Source of the DNA: Paracoccaceae bacterium
GTDB lineage: Bacteria > Pseudomonadota > Alphaproteobacteria > Rhodobacterales > Rhodobacteraceae
Length of the DNA stretch: 11,408 nt
NCBI GenBank assembly: GCA_003561595.1
Contig: PWWF01000402.1
Span: forward strand, 1 to 11,408
Direction of reading: 5' to 3'
The first letter of the stretch is position 1, and each line of letters begins with the position of its first letter. The position numbers were made by a program, and so were the translations under genes. The notes below the pieces were generated by a model. That model made no database searches. It was not told where the DNA came from and worked only from the letters and a program-made list of their open reading frames with translations. Shown piece by piece: positions 5,339 to 11,408 of the stretch.

Positions 5339-5908
5339 ATGACCGAAACCCCGCCCGTCATGGAGTTCCTGCTGTCGCGCCGGTCGCGCCCCGCCAAGCT
5401 GCTGGCCCCGCCCGTGCCGGACCGCGACCAGCTATTGCCGATCCTGACCGCCGCCGCCCGCGTGCCCGATCATGGCAAGCTGGAGCCGTGGCGCTTTGTG
5501 GTGATGGGCCGCACGACCTGCACGGCAATGGCCGAAGCGGTCGAGGCGCGCGGTCTGGAAATCGGCATTGACCCCGACAAGCTGGCCAAGACGGTCCGTG
5601 CCTTTGGCGACGCGCATCTGATCGTGGCGGTCATTGCCAGCCCCAAACCCTCTGCCAAGATCCCCGAGATCGAACAGACGCTCTCGGCCGGGGCCGTCTG
5701 TCTGGGGCTGGTCAATGCCGCGCTGGCCAGCGGCTGGGGCGCCAACTGGCTGACCGGCTGGCCTGCGATGGACGCAACTGTGCAAGCCCATCTGGGGCTT
5801 GGCCCGTCCGAATGGGTCGCGGGGTTCATCCATCTGGGCACGGCCACGGCCACACCCCCCGAACGCCCCCGCCCGGATATAGAGGCCCTGACCACATGGC
5901 AGCCGTGA
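5339..5908 (+). CDS. YdjA-like nitroreductase family protein
   Basis: A 189-residue FMN-dependent nitroreductase-fold protein resembling the small YdjA subgroup, which reduces nitro or quinone-type compounds with NAD(P)H as homodimers. The physiological substrate is unknown. Seen features are the N-terminal FMN phosphate-binding segment SRRSRPAKLL (13-22), PDHGKLEPWRF (43-53), the helix LSAGAVCLGLVNAALASGWGANWLTG (115-140), and the C-terminal GFIHLGTA (162-169). The start at 5339 is preceded by a weak AAGAG; the Met at residue 8 (5360) is a possible alternative start. The 3' end overlaps the first EI24 gene by 13 bases, which makes one transcript with the two membrane proteins likely. The 76-base gap upstream must hold the promoters of this gene and of divergent DUF167; no clear -35/-10 pair was recognised there. 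Confidence 0.92.
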   Translation: MTETPPVMEFLLSRRSRPAKLLAPPVPDRDQLLPILTAAARVPDHGKLEPWRFVVMGRTTCTAMAEAVEARGLEIGIDPDKLAKTVRAFGDAHLIVAVIASPKPSAKIPEIEQTLSAGAVCLGLVNAALASGWGANWLTGWPAMDATVQAHLGLGPSEWVAGFIHLGTATATPPERPRPDIEALTTWQP

Positions 5909-6612
5909 TCCGACACGCCTTTTCGCTGGCATTCGCGCAGATGCGAGAGCCGTCCTTTCGCATGCTTGCGGTTCTGGGCGCGGCGCTGTCACTGGTGCTG
6001 CTGTTCGTGGTCTTTGCGCTTCTGGTGCAACTGTTCGTCGGCAGTGGCGGGCTGACGATTTCGGGCGATATCCAGATGACCCGGCTGGGTGATTTCTTCT
6101 CACCCATTACCATCCTGCTGATGCTCGGGCTGTCGGTGTTTCTGATGATGCCGGTCGCCTCGCTCTTCACGGGGCTGCACCTGAACGCGGTCGCCGACGC
6201 GGTCGAGGCGCGGCACTACCCCGACCTGCCGCCAGCTGCCCCGCTGCCCCCGCTCAAGCTCTGGGGCGATTCGGCGCGTTATTTCTTTCCGATCCTGGGC
6301 ATCAACCTGCTGGGGATCATCGGGCTGTTCCTGCTGGGCGCGCTCTGGGGGTTTGCGTTGTTCTGGTTCCTGAACGGGTGGCTGCTGTCGCGCGAATACC
6401 TGACCATGATCGCCGAGCGGCGCGACGACCCCGCCACGATCCACGCCTTTCGCCAGCGCCATCGCGGCCCGTTGCTGATGGCAGGATTCGCGCTGGCCTT
6501 TCTGCTGTCGATCCCGGTCCTGAATCTGGTGATGCCGGTGATCGGCGTGGCCGTCTTTACCCATCTTGCGCATACGCTGACCCCCCACCAACTGCATGAG
6601 GCCGCCCCATGA
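5896..6612 (+). CDS. EI24 domain (CysZ-like) membrane protein, first of a tandem pair
   Basis: A 238-residue inner-membrane protein of the EI24/CysZ family. CysZ imports sulfate, but the substrate of this alphaproteobacterial subgroup is not known from sequence. Hydrophobic stretches lie at about residues 24-48, 70-93, 130-165 and 192-225. Family-like segments are GLSVFLMMPVASLFTGLHL (78-96) followed by NAVADAVEARHYPDL, the loop LNGWLLSREYLTMIAERR (159-176), and the C-terminal SIPVLNLVMPVIGVAVFTHL (205-224). The ATG at 5896 is internal to the nitroreductase end (13-base overlap). The frame is open further upstream, but that part is the antiparallel-like shadow of the nitroreductase and lacks family similarity. 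The stop overlaps the ATG of the next gene, its paralog, by 4 bases (ATGA), implying translational coupling. Confidence 0.87.
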   Translation: MAAVIRHAFSLAFAQMREPSFRMLAVLGAALSLVLLFVVFALLVQLFVGSGGLTISGDIQMTRLGDFFSPITILLMLGLSVFLMMPVASLFTGLHLNAVADAVEARHYPDLPPAAPLPPLKLWGDSARYFFPILGINLLGIIGLFLLGALWGFALFWFLNGWLLSREYLTMIAERRDDPATIHAFRQRHRGPLLMAGFALAFLLSIPVLNLVMPVIGVAVFTHLAHTLTPHQLHEAAP

Positions 6613-7331
6613 TCCGCGCCTATATCGATTCCGTCACCCAGATCCGCGACCCGCGCTACCGCAAGCTGTTATGGATCGGGATCATCCTGTCGGTGGTGCT
6701 GCTGTTCCTGCTTTACGCCTTTGTGCTGCTGATCGTGCAGTTGCTGATGCCCGGCGCGCTGTTCCTGCCGATCACAGGGCAGGTGGAGGGGCTGTCCTCG
6801 CTGTTTTCGCTGGGCTCGATCCTGTATCTGCTGGGGCTGTCGGTGTTTCTGATGGTGCCCGTTGCCTCGGTCTTTACCGGGTTTTACCTTGATGACGTGG
6901 CCGACGCGGTCGAGGCAGAGCATTACCGCGACCTTGCCCCCCGCAACCGCACCCCGCTGCTGGAAGCTGTGGGCGACGGTCTGCGCTATTTCGGGCTGCT
7001 GGTGGGGGTGAATGTGGTCGGCATGGCCATCTTTGCCGTGTCGAACGGCTGGGGCCTGACGATCCTGTGGGTGGTGAACGGGCTGCTGCTGTCGCGCGAG
7101 TTCTTTACCATGATTGCGCGGCGCCGCCACGGACCGGAAGACGCGCGCCGCCTGTTCCGCAATGATTTCTACTGGCTATGGCTGCCCGGTATCTTACTGG
7201 CCATCGGGCTCAGCATTCCGGTGGTGAACCTTGCCATGCCACTGGTCGGCGCGGCCGTGTTCACGCATCTCTATCACTGGCTGCACCCGACAGAACAGGA
7301 CGCGGTGCCAGAGGTCACGGACGACGCGTAA
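6609..7331 (+). CDS. EI24 domain (CysZ-like) membrane protein, second of a tandem pair
   Basis: A 240-residue inner-membrane protein and clear paralog of the gene before it. GLSVFLMVPVASVFTGFYL (76-94) followed by DDVADAVEAEHYRDL, VNGLLLSREFFTMIARRR (156-173) and SIPVVNLAMPLVGAAVFTHL (202-221) align almost position for position. Hydrophobic segments lie at about 20-47, 68-92, 125-160 and 188-222. A short acidic C-terminal tail (EQDAVPEVTDDA) has no counterpart in the upstream copy. Coupling through the ATGA overlap suggests equal production, compatible with a hetero-oligomer; that is inference. The last 17 bases overlap the end of the convergent DUF1467 gene. Substrate is unknown. Confidence 0.87.
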   Translation: MIRAYIDSVTQIRDPRYRKLLWIGIILSVVLLFLLYAFVLLIVQLLMPGALFLPITGQVEGLSSLFSLGSILYLLGLSVFLMVPVASVFTGFYLDDVADAVEAEHYRDLAPRNRTPLLEAVGDGLRYFGLLVGVNVVGMAIFAVSNGWGLTILWVVNGLLLSREFFTMIARRRHGPEDARRLFRNDFYWLWLPGILLAIGLSIPVVNLAMPLVGAAVFTHLYHWLHPTEQDAVPEVTDDA

Positions 7332-9054: not shown

Positions 9055-10440
9055 ATGACCGACACCCGCAACGACAAAACGCCTGCAGGCGCGATGCAGC
9101 ACGACATCCCGCCGCGCAAGACCCGCAAAAGCACCATCAAATCCGCGCTGGACGGGGCCGCCCCTTCACATTTCGTGCCCATGCCCGACGGTCTGGTACA
9201 GGTGCCCGTCGCGCGCATTCCGCATGACACCCTGATCTACCGGCTGGAAAACGGGCGGCTGATCGCCGAATTGCACGAATACATGCACCGTCATAACGTC
9301 AGTTGGGACAAGCTGGAACAAAGCGTTGAAGCACCCGAGACCCAGTCCCTGCTGCACGGCTTGCTGATGCAGCACGCCGCCGATGCGCGCGGGCCGATCT
9401 TTCAGGAACTCAAGCGCCAGAAACAGCAGATCGAACCGCTGCTGATCGACCGCAACGGCATTGTCATCAACGGCAACCGCCGTCTGGCCGCGATGCGCAC
9501 ATTGCTGGCCGAGGACGCCGCCGCCTTTGCCGATTTCGCGGACCTGACCGTCGCCGTGCTGCCAAAGGATATCAGCGCCGCCGATATCGATTTCATCGAG
9601 GCCGCGCTGCAGATGGCCCCCGAAACCAAGCTGGGCTATGGCTGGGTCAACCGGCGGCTGAAACTGCGCCGCCAGTTGACCACGCTGGAACTGCCGCGCG
9701 ATTGGGTGCGCAAGGCCTATCAGATCGAGGATGACGCCCAGCTTGATCGCGAAATCGCGGAACTGGCGCTGGTCGAGGAGTATCTGAGCACCCATCTCGG
9801 AACGCCAGATCATTACGAGGCGGTTGCCGATGCGGAAGCCCATTTCGCGGCCCTGCAGACGCAGCTTGCAGAACTTGACGCGCCGCTGCGCGATCTGTGG
9901 AAAACCATCGGCTTTGCGATGATCGAGGCGCGCGCCAAGCTGGGCCAGGTCCTGCTGACGGGCTTCCCGTTCGAGGCCCCCACGCCCAAACACCTGCCCA
10001 CCAACGCCCCGCGACGGTTCCTGCAAGAACATCTGGCGCAGGAGCCTGATACCGAAAAGCCCGACGCCCCGCTGGGCGCCTCCGAGGTTCAGGACCTGCA
10101 ACAATTCTTCAGCCAGACAGGGCTGAAAGACCTCGAACCCTTGCGCGACCTGATGGCGCTGATGACCGACCTGCGCGAGGAACACCGCATCAAGGTCGAA
10201 CCTGCTGCCATGGTCAAGAGCCTGCGCAACGCCCGCGCCAAGCTCGACAAACTCTCGCCAGAGCGTTTGAGCGACACTCAGCGCAGCGCTCTGCGCAGCG
10301 AAATCGGCGCGATTCAGGCGCAGGCAGCCTGGCTGCTGGGCGAGGCCCCGGACCATCGGTTCGAACAGTCCAAGACAACCATGGTCAAGGCTGTCTCGGC
10401 CTATCTGAAACGCTGGCGCGCCATGCGTGGGCGCGGTTAA
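9055..10440 (+). CDS. Orphan ParB/sulfiredoxin-fold protein, not a chromosome-partition ParB
   Basis: A 461-residue cytosolic protein. A basic, disordered-looking N-terminus (RKTRKSTIKS, 21-30) precedes a ParB-like N-terminal domain: VPVARIPHDTLIYRLENGRL (about 50-69), an extended insertion (70-125), then IEPLLIDRNGIVINGNRRLAAM (126-147). GNRRLAA corresponds to the GHRR-type nucleotide-binding motif of ParB/Srx folds. DISAADIDFIEAALQMAP (172-189) resembles the post-motif helix of ParB (ENLQR region), and about 216-245 is weakly reminiscent of its HTH. The last 200 residues are charged and helical, with no domain that I recognise. No parA or parS-like palindrome is nearby, so a partition role is unlikely; nuclease, CTPase-switch or regulatory roles are open. 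The start at 9055 is supported by GAGAGGGG just upstream; the longer in-frame start at 8929 would add implausible residues. Its stop lies 5 bases from convergent aspS. Confidence 0.8.
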   Translation: MTDTRNDKTPAGAMQHDIPPRKTRKSTIKSALDGAAPSHFVPMPDGLVQVPVARIPHDTLIYRLENGRLIAELHEYMHRHNVSWDKLEQSVEAPETQSLLHGLLMQHAADARGPIFQELKRQKQQIEPLLIDRNGIVINGNRRLAAMRTLLAEDAAAFADFADLTVAVLPKDISAADIDFIEAALQMAPETKLGYGWVNRRLKLRRQLTTLELPRDWVRKAYQIEDDAQLDREIAELALVEEYLSTHLGTPDHYEAVADAEAHFAALQTQLAELDAPLRDLWKTIGFAMIEARAKLGQVLLTGFPFEAPTPKHLPTNAPRRFLQEHLAQEPDTEKPDAPLGASEVQDLQQFFSQTGLKDLEPLRDLMALMTDLREEHRIKVEPAAMVKSLRNARAKLDKLSPERLSDTQRSALRSEIGAIQAQAAWLLGEAPDHRFEQSKTTMVKAVSAYLKRWRAMRGRG

Positions 10441-10445
10441 CGGCG

Positions 10446-11408
10446 TCAGCTTTCCGGGGGCAGCACCCGCAGACGCAGGTCGCGCAACTGGTCATTCGTC
10501 GGGGCCGATGGCGCACCCAGCAACAGATCCTCGGCGCGCTGGTTCATCGGGAACATGATGACTTGCCGGATATTGGCCTCATCCGCCAAGAGCATCACGA
10601 TCCGGTCAATGCCCGCCGCGCAGCCGCCATGGGGCGGCGCGCCGAACTTGAACGCCTTGACCATGCCACCAAAGCGCGTGTCCACCTCGGATGCCGGATA
10701 GCCCGCGATTTCAAACGCGCGATACATGATCTCGGGCTTGTGGTTGCGGATCGCGCCTGACAGGATCTCATAGCCATTGCAGGCCAGATCATATTGATAG
10801 CCCTTGACCGCCAGCGGATCGCCCGAAAGCGCCTCCATCCCCCCTTGCGGCATGGAAAACGGGTTATGGCTGAAATCGATCTTGCCGGTCTCAGCGTCGG
10901 CCTCATACATCGGGAAATCGACGATCCAGGCAAAGGCGAAACGATCTGTATCGATCAGCTTCAACTCGCGCCCGATCTCGTCGCGCGCCTTGGCGGCGAC
11001 GCCCTCGAACTGCGCGGGCTTGCCACCAAGGAAGAAGGCCGCGTCACCCTCGCCAAGGCCGAGTTGCTGGCGGATCGCCTCCGTGCGTTCGGGGCCGATA
11101 TTCTTGGCGAGAGGGCCAGCGGCTTCTTGATCGCCGAAGTATGCGCCGACAAGTAAGTTCGCCTCCGAAAGACCACCATTCCTGACCAGTTCAATGATCC
11201 GGTTAATAATCTTTTGAGATTCTTGCTCGTTTAATCCAGACTGACTTGCAATCAGTGGCCAAGCTCGACCCTTCTCTGCATCCGATACACTCGACCAAGC
11301 ATTCACGAACTTTTCTGCTGCGTTGGGCGCTTCTATGTCGCCCTCCCAAAATCCGTGAGGCGCTCGTTTTCTCCAAAAAATATACCCCATCCCCGGCAGC
11401 CCCTGCGC
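10446..11408 (-). CDS. aspS: Aspartyl-tRNA synthetase (partial, 5' end outside window) with an in-frame insertion
   Basis: The 3' part (320 codons) of a class II bacterial-type AspRS, which charges tRNA with aspartate. Visible are the GAD (insertion) domain from [12 protein letters not shown] onward, [33 protein letters not shown], the catalytic-core segments [24 protein letters not shown] and motif 3 [14 protein letters not shown], and the C-terminal [13 protein letters not shown] ending LPPES. The N-terminal anticodon-binding domain and motifs 1-2 lie past the right edge. The oddity is the GAD loop: about 81 residues separate GYIFWRK from AAGPLAKN, where E. coli has about 9 and relatives only slightly more. 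The extra segment is AT-rich with atypical codons (AGA, CGA, TTA, ATA) but has no stop and keeps frame. Catalytic residues downstream look intact, so the enzyme may be functional. The stop is 5 bases from that of the convergent ParB-like gene. Confidence 0.95.
11122..11135. repeat. Imperfect direct repeat, right side of the aspS insert in coding direction
   Basis: GCTTCTTGATCGCC on the plus strand matches the copy at 11329-11342 at 11 of 14 positions. The offset is 207 bp, exactly 69 codons, so collapsing one copy restores a short GAD loop in frame. On the protein the two copies read GDQEA and GDIEA. Confidence 0.45.
11136..11328 (-). other. Low-GC in-frame insertion in the aspS GAD domain
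   Basis: By my count 93 of 193 bases are G or C (about 48%), against clearly GC-rich flanks. On the minus strand it encodes an uninterrupted, mostly helical-looking peptide, including [40 protein letters not shown] and [14 protein letters not shown]. The middle piece is weakly HTH-like, but I do not recognise the family. Low GC and unusual codons continue to about 11385, through the codons for [15 protein letters not shown], so the foreign stretch may be up to about 250 bp. It lacks intein motifs (no Cys/Ser at the left junction, no terminal His-Asn) and is too short for an intein. Alternatives are a divergent natural loop expansion, recombination from a low-GC aspS, or an assembly artefact. 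Confidence 0.7.
11329..11342. repeat. Imperfect direct repeat, left side of the aspS insert in coding direction
   Basis: GCTTCTATGTCGCC on the plus strand is the partner of 11122-11135, with the three mismatches all together in the middle. It could be a decayed target duplication or a microhomology used for recombination, or the resemblance may be chance. Confidence 0.45.

What the first reader, a model, noticed from the sequence alone, without database searches (positions are those of the whole stretch)
11136..11385. About 70 foreign-looking residues inserted in frame in the GAD domain of AspRS
Both flanks are ordinary alphaproteobacterial AspRS ([12 protein letters not shown] and [11 protein letters not shown]), yet the loop between them is about 81 residues instead of roughly 9-15. 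The extra DNA is about 48% G+C with AGA, CGA, TTA and ATA codons, unlike the rest of the window, and has no stop codon over about 250 bases. An in-frame insertion of foreign DNA into a single-copy essential gene recalls Rickettsia palindromic elements, which insert in frame in genes, but no palindrome is evident here. The loop site could tolerate a small folded domain, adding a new binding surface to the synthetase.
Basis: partly seen in the sequence, partly recalled or inferred. Interest (0 to 1): 0.82.

Follow-up and report, generated by a model that had tools for sequence, protein, structure and literature searches.

The report
Hypervariable swappable domain in aspartyl-tRNA synthetase
An essential enzyme that loads tRNA with aspartate carries, at one fixed loop, a small extra protein segment whose sequence differs almost completely between close relatives and is swapped by DNA exchange in one bacterial family, a pattern more typical of molecules caught in an arms race than of a housekeeping enzyme.

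Summary
The aspS fragment at the window's end carries 81 codons (11127-11369, minus strand) where the same assembly's contig C44 has six: net +75 aa, in frame, GC 0.50 against 0.63. It is not unique. At the same GAD-domain hairpin, 11 of 30 readable genomes of the genus and 22 of 93 other sampled family genomes carry extra sequence (11 of the 22 are one short conserved form, 10 of them with normal GC). In 137 alphaproteobacteria outside the family only two have long loops, both low-complexity. The 71 distinct inserts compared fall into 49 clusters at 40% identity.

Alignable inserts evolve as coding sequence under purifying selection; long ones are lower in GC in 62 of 63; presence shows no phylogenetic signal in the genus. 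Swapping is visible: sister species with about 97% identical aspS have very different inserts, and two genera share a 99% identical insert inside genes about 80% identical. Four assemblies, this one included, hold two loop alleles. No free-standing relative or fold match was found.

Best reading: a hypervariable, mostly helical segment, kept polymorphic by allele exchange, most likely to escape or tune binding by an unknown AspRS-directed antagonist (inferred). The Rickettsia-palindromic-element reading fails.

The parts
10446..11408 (-). aspS (aspartate--tRNA ligase), 3' part; the 5' part lies outside the window
   Evidence: 320-codon open frame to the contig end; PF00152 E=1.1e-37; TIGR00459 match on C408, below the cut-off on its own because it is a fragment
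11370..11408 (-). flank before the insert, ...[11 protein letters not shown] (GAD-domain strand); first 36 nt match contig C44 with one mismatch at 11376
11127..11369 (-). insert: 81 codons replacing the six residues AGSDGL; low GC; predicted helical, ending in an AYFG..E stretch like other inserts
11079..11126 (-). aspS flank after the insert with six mismatches to contig C44 (11079, 11088, 11109, 11112, 11115, 11118): read as a recombination footprint
10981..11078 (-). 98 nt identical to the end of contig C44; read as an assembly-graph overlap where two alleles merge (inference)

Best explanation
SHOWN: The beta-hairpin turn of the GAD domain of Rhodobacteraceae AspRS is a hypervariable site. 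It has either a short loop (about 9 residues) or one of many alternative in-frame segments of about 30-100 residues. Those that can be aligned are constrained at the protein level, the long ones are lower in GC, and segments are moved between lineages by recombination of the insert with short stretches of flanking aspS. INFERRED: The insert is a small, mostly helical accessory domain displayed on the cell's only AspRS. The many alleles persist because being different pays: the loop is the docking surface of an AspRS-directed antagonist (a phage protein or a competitor's toxin) or of a variable partner. Strains gain by swapping to an allele, or to the bare loop, that the current antagonist does not bind. 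The antagonist is not identified.
For: Same-site inserts of many sequences and lengths; 71 distinct inserts in 49 clusters. Sister genomes G020/G011: core 97.6% (1092 nt upstream) and 96.2% (666 nt downstream) identical, inserts barely alignable (17 identities in a block of 76/53 residues), excess mismatches confined to the first 90 nt downstream. G022 and G097 (different genera): insert 99% identical with 0 of 35 synonymous differences, pS 0.50 over the 466 other aligned codons. Eleven long-insert pairs: insert pS 0.72-0.93, pN 0.20-0.48; rest pS 0.36-0.66, so insert alleles look older than the genes carrying them. Differences by codon position 209/172/392 in eight pairs. Genus tree: 10 changes for insert/none, shuffled mean 9.8-9.9. 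Two alleles within one assembly in G000, G022, G193, G241. One aspS and no AsnRS over cut-off in 10 of 10 genomes. In 99 kb around aspS only aspS shows such a block among 297 ORF pairs.
Against: No antagonist or partner was found. Neighbouring ORFs were only clustered, not annotated or compared with insert-free genomes, so a linked partner is neither shown nor excluded. No phage, viral or plasmid relative of the inserts tried. Selection inside alignable inserts is purifying, not dN>dS. The eleven pairs were chosen by me for similarity and are not all independent, and misaligned codons would raise pS and pN. Half of the insert-bearing genomes in the family sample carry one short conserved form, 10 of 11 with normal GC, that looks like an ordinary inherited indel. 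Two-allele assemblies could reflect mixed strains or binning, and the control for other genes is local.
Confidence: 0.42

Rival explanations
1. Regulatory or adaptive module: the insert tunes AspRS, for example its docking with GatCAB on tRNA-Asn, its stability or localisation, and different alleles suit different habitats.
For: One AspRS and no AsnRS over cut-off in 10 of 10 genomes, so AspRS probably also charges tRNA-Asn. Alignable inserts are constrained proteins, and 19 of 43 long inserts not selected by the pattern end in the same FG..E stretch.
Against: Sister species, and alleles within one assembly, differ between no insert and very different inserts, which is hard to reconcile with a specific interaction with conserved GatCAB or tRNA.
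Confidence: 0.22
2. Permissive neutral loop: a surface turn that tolerates insertions, with alleles moved by ordinary homologous recombination and no benefit.
For: Bare and insert-bearing alleles are mixed on the genus tree with no phylogenetic signal.
Against: Insert synonymous sites are near saturation while the surrounding gene is not, implying a maintained old allele pool; purifying selection; near-absence outside one family, 2 of 137, both low-complexity.
Confidence: 0.18
3. Selfish in-frame element (like a Rickettsia palindromic element or a mini-intein) that inserts at this site.
For: Low GC, in frame, sporadic, transferred.
Against: No palindrome within the insert, no other significant genomic copy of this insert type, no Pfam hit to a splicing or homing domain, very different sequences at one site, transfer includes flanking aspS sequence.
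Confidence: 0.06
4. Assembly chimera: the window's insert is a false join.
For: Contig end, 98-nt exact overlap with an insert-free contig, fragmented assembly.
Against: aspS flanks lie on both sides of the insert in the correct frame; the insert scores E=2.8e-16 against a profile made from it and 29 relatives; the same architecture occurs on contigs of 3.5-3.8 Mb.
Confidence: 0.05

Closest known systems
Bacterial AspRS (TIGR00459) with GAD insertion domain
   Same: Six insert-bearing genes tested are otherwise full-length AspRS over the family cut-off
   Different: The GAD hairpin turn carries an extra 25-100 residue segment that splits the GAD match
Rickettsia palindromic elements (recalled, no call)
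   Same: In-frame, AT-rich segments inside a conserved gene
   Different: No palindrome, no dispersed copies found, one fixed site, protein-level constraint
Type I restriction specificity subunits (HsdS target-recognition domains) and surface-antigen cassettes (recalled)
   Same: Alternative low-similarity domains swapped by recombination between conserved flanks
   Different: Here the carrier is a single-copy aminoacyl-tRNA synthetase and no cognate system is known
Appended or inserted accessory domains of aminoacyl-tRNA synthetases (recalled)
   Same: Extra domain on a synthetase outside the catalytic core
   Different: Those I recall are lineage-stable; this one is polymorphic even within assemblies
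AspRS as target of microcin C; LeuRS as target of agrocin 84 (recalled)
   Same: Synthetases are known targets of natural antagonists
   Different: Those act at the active site; here variation is in a GAD loop and no antagonist is known

Membership tests
Bacterial aspartate--tRNA ligase (TIGR00459) | Whole-protein match over curated cut-off | tested here: met
   Insert-bearing G010, G011, G020, G021, G118, G328 over cut-off with the pieces of the frame summed (556-580 bits); the window fragment alone scores 174.8 and does not reach it because its 5' half lies off the contig
Bacterial aspartate--tRNA ligase (TIGR00459) | GAD domain at the loop | tested here: met
   Insert-free C44 copy: GAD 29.0 bits (cut-off 23.4) over residues 376-465, spanning the loop; insert-bearing L139 and L120 score 20.1 and 24.1 with only one side matched; the window fragment 14.2
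Rickettsia palindromic element | Palindromic/hairpin DNA structure of the element | tested here: not met
   The only inverted repeat reported in 11000-11408 has arms 11032-11057 and 11103-11128, outside the insert but for two bases
Rickettsia palindromic element | Several copies at many genomic sites | tested here: not met
   No second significant copy in own genome; the profile of this insert type finds nothing significant outside aspS in 37 genus genomes; it also misses other insert types, so it speaks for this type only
Intein | Hint splicing domain or homing endonuclease | tested here: not met
   No such Pfam family for the window insert or for the 30 aligned inserts
Known protein domain family | Recognisable sequence or fold relative | tested here: not met
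   Pfam: 19 families, each hit by 1 of 30 members, best 1.9e-4; PHROGs: 5 families, each by 1 member, best 0.0078; Foldseek no hit at E<=0.001 in PDB or BFVD for the window insert model; no homologue at E<=1 among proteins of similar length
Antagonist-escape (arms-race) locus | Identified antagonist that discriminates alleles | not testable with these tools
   No candidate found; viral and phage searches with single inserts negative
Antagonist-escape (arms-race) locus | Allelic diversity older than flanking sequence, exchanged by recombination | tested here: inconclusive
   Insert synonymous sites near saturation against rest pS 0.36-0.66 in eleven chosen pairs and recombination footprints fit; no population sample of one species was available

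The most novel reading that the evidence does not exclude
Rhodobacteraceae keep an old, shared pool of interchangeable accessory domains in the only copy of an essential tRNA synthetase, maintained by balancing selection in the manner of immune or self-recognition loci. This implies an undiscovered, widespread class of phage- or competitor-borne factors that attack AspRS through its GAD domain.
Probability: 0.33. Interest if true: 0.92.

Novelty: new variant of a known kind. Interest (0 to 1): 0.76.

Why it matters
Aminoacyl-tRNA synthetases are usually treated as slow, conserved markers. A hypervariable, horizontally swapped domain in one of them would point to an unseen selective force on translation enzymes, perhaps a natural AspRS inhibitor. 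It could also break aspS assemblies in metagenomes and mislead phylogenies, and it offers a bait with which to find the partner.

Tried and rejected
Searches that led nowhere: insert against 5.8 billion proteins (no candidates; with a 30-row alignment, 1355 candidates, none at E<=1; with the insert region of the Ruegeria pomeroyi protein, 103 candidates, only itself). Viral contigs, phages (best E=2), plasmids (one chance-level hit). Rfam at gathering scores (none). Clustering of neighbour ORFs for a linked partner: clusters exist, for example upstream ORFs shared by 13-14 of 30 loci, but I did not annotate them or compare with insert-free genomes. Literature: ten searches listed nothing on variable AspRS inserts; I saw listings and abstract starts, plus two passages of PMC4206432, which contribute nothing beyond calling GAD a bacterial AspRS insertion domain. 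The library holds open-licence papers only, so this is not proof of absence.

Rejected: misassembly as the whole explanation; palindromic element; intein; decaying duplicate (one aspS per genome in 10 of 10); ancient conserved indel (fits only the short form). The full-length model (mean pLDDT 57) is poor in the catalytic core and was used only for the insert region. The E=0.08 hit on C311 overlaps a gene that looks like rarA by eye. Profile hits at E 0.04-0.1 to a conserved ~830-aa protein in 17 genus genomes are not significant. Net charge is negative in 42 of 42 inserts over 55 aa, without a control.

Caution on the motif: the 29 named loci were found with a pattern that demands [11 protein letters not shown], so those residues are invariant by construction; among 43 long inserts not so selected 19 end in FG..E.

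Rows dropped: A1 used 26 of the 29 pattern loci (L122, L125, L141 left out). The genus tree used 32 rows from 30 genomes; of 37 genomes searched five had no match at E<=0.001 and G002 and G007 had no readable loop. Two-allele assemblies: G000 and G022 were noticed directly; ten family genomes with unusual match counts and six genus genomes were then looked at, giving G193 and G241. One search used a wrong stretch upstream of the insert and was not used; one search used wrong insert coordinates and was replaced. One search counts inserts from loci up to L142 only.

Full report
WHAT IS THERE. The window is a complete contig (C408) of a 3.31 Mb, 440-contig assembly. It is a member of the Rhodobacteraceae: genome G010, of the same genus, has an aspS contig of the same length (116,419 bases) and the same insert as the named record REBU01000043.1, 'Rhodobacteraceae bacterium'. 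The window's last gene, on the minus strand, is the 3' part of aspS. Between GYIFWR and [12 protein letters not shown] it has 81 residues instead of the six (AGSDGL) found on contig C44 of the same assembly. In the C44 copy the Pfam GAD match spans this loop (29.0 bits, cut-off 23.4). The segment is 11127-11369, in frame, GC 0.498 against 0.628 in the aspS sequence that follows, GC3 0.469 against 0.789.

TWO ALLELES IN ONE ASSEMBLY. Contig C44 carries the 5' part of aspS and the normal loop and ends inside the gene. From the end of C408 inward the two contigs compare as follows: 36 nt with one mismatch, then the insert, then 48 nt with six mismatches, then 98 identical nt up to the end of C44. 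The exact overlap looks like a k-mer join (inference), so the assembler met two versions of aspS. Three other assemblies also hold two versions: G022 (two different inserts), G193 and G241 (bare loop and insert). Mixed strains are the simple reading; reads were not available.

HOW COMMON AND HOW VARIABLE. In the window's genus 37 genomes were searched and 32 had a match. In the 30 whose loop I could read, 11 carry an insert (12 insert rows and 20 bare rows, G000 and G022 giving two rows each). In a sample of 95 family genomes, about one per genus, 94 matched, that is 93 besides G000: 71 align in one piece across the loop and 22 are split by extra sequence. Reading the 22 gives 11 with a short form (like REKTADAVAQELGITVKEAQAKLKSGE) and 11 with variable segments. 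Of the 11 short ones, 10 have the GC of their gene (nine, L101); the eleventh, G097, is a low-GC variant (0.53 against 0.66) and is the one found to be transferred. Outside the family 137 of 140 alphaproteobacterial genomes matched; two have long loops, both low-complexity (G059 and G568, read), and the others show at most about 11 extra residues, a few matches being partial. A DNA pattern for one insert type found 29 named loci, with titles naming Rhodobacteraceae, Rhodobacterales, one 'Alphaproteobacteria bacterium', or genera such as Ruegeria, Jannaschia, Rhodovulum, Litoreibacter, Lutimaribacter, Palleronia and Hasllibacter. Among loci L001-L142, 71 distinct inserts of at least 25 aa form 49 clusters at 40% identity over 80% of length, 40 of them singletons. 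In 63 distinct long inserts GC is lower than in the rest of the gene in 62 (mean 0.496 against 0.625).

IT BEHAVES AS A PROTEIN. In eleven long-insert pairs that I chose because they align, synonymous differences (pS 0.72-0.93) far exceed nonsynonymous ones (pN 0.20-0.48). In eight pairs, 585 codons, differences by codon position are 209, 172 and 392. Of 43 long inserts collected without the pattern, 19 end in FG..E; in the 29 pattern-selected loci this ending is so by construction. AlphaFold2 gives four helices for the window insert alone (mean pLDDT 72; residues 41-80, mainly the last two helices, at 80-93, the first half only 52-64) and four helices for the insert of Ruegeria pomeroyi SZCCDBG043 within AspRS (blocks of the insert region 77-85), between two strands. 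The rest of that model is poor because the alignment is shallow. No PDB or viral fold matched the window insert model at E<=0.001.

IT IS SWAPPED. G020 and G011 are sisters: 97.6% identity over 1092 nt upstream and 96.2% over 666 nt downstream, yet their inserts share 17 identities in a block of 76/53 residues; both still match the same insert profile, G011 only weakly (E=7.7e-8 and 0.004). In 45-nt windows downstream the mismatches are 12, 7, then 0-2, a clear tract edge. G022 and G097 belong to different genera: their inserts are 99% identical with 0 of 35 synonymous differences, while the other 466 aligned codons have pS 0.50. On the genus tree of aspS without the loop, insert presence needs 10 changes, the same as shuffled labels (9.8-9.9). 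In the eleven long-insert pairs the insert is near synonymous saturation although the carrying genes are not (rest pS 0.36-0.66). The insert alleles therefore look older than the genes that carry them, as expected of a maintained allele pool; faster mutation or misaligned codons are not excluded. In contrast, two pairs of the short normal-GC form have insert pS close to that of their gene (0.68 against 0.64, 0.39 against 0.48), as expected of vertical descent.

IS aspS SPECIAL? Over 99 kb around aspS, comparing G020 with G011, 297 reciprocal ORF pairs (spurious overlapping ORFs included) were aligned, and only aspS had an internal low-identity block between conserved flanks; in G020 against G021, 39 pairs, again only aspS. 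This is a local control, not genome-wide. There is one aspS in 10 of 10 genomes checked (in G000 split over two contigs), and none has an AsnRS over the cut-off, so the carrier is very likely essential and probably also charges tRNA-Asn (inference).

MECHANISM. Shown: a fixed site, many alternative protein segments, purifying constraint where testable, recombination of insert plus short flanks, coexistence of alleles in four assemblies. Inferred: diversity is maintained because rare or foreign alleles are favoured, most simply if the loop is where an AspRS-directed factor binds. I found no such factor: no phage, viral or plasmid relative of the inserts tried, and neighbours of aspS were only clustered. 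The rivals are a habitat-tuned regulatory module and a neutral permissive loop. The age contrast and the protein constraint argue against the neutral loop, and polymorphism between sisters argues against a specific conserved partner, but neither is excluded.

KNOWN OR NEW. It is not a palindromic element, not an intein and not a recognised domain. Ten literature searches in an open-licence library listed nothing on variable AspRS inserts. Swappable domains between conserved flanks are known from restriction specificity subunits and surface antigens (recalled); I know of none in an aminoacyl-tRNA synthetase. I therefore call it a new variant of a known kind.

Noticed in passing
L100, L101, L104, L173-L176, L178-L180, L182, L184 (AspRS loop): A short insertion of about 25 residues (KTADAVAQELGITVKEAQAKLKSGE-like) is conserved across many genera with roughly the GC of its gene and looks vertically inherited, unlike the long inserts; a low-GC relative of it (L009, L094, L105) behaves like a transferred allele.
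   Followed up: partly
L109, L181, L238, L246 (AspRS loop): Another loop type of about 45-60 residues ends in an aromatic stretch before EAAGPL (e.g. WYDPDHDRWFEAAG); by eye not helical.
   Followed up: no
G004, G016, G023, G025, G035 (same genus): No aspS match at E<=0.001 in 5 of 37 genus genomes, one of them rated 100% complete; perhaps assemblies lose aspS where loop alleles are mixed.
   Followed up: no
L028 (G009): Here the flanks of the loop are also changed (GYIVWQ...AKGPIANNIGQDRCEAIRDQLNLKQG), suggesting a longer replaced tract.
   Followed up: no
window 9055-10437 (+): A 461-aa protein convergent with aspS has no Pfam hit; by eye it has a ParB-like NGNRRLAA motif (recalled).
   Followed up: no
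window 5812-6612 and 6609-7331 (+): Two adjacent, overlapping EI24/CysZ-like genes, apparently a tandem duplication.
   Followed up: no
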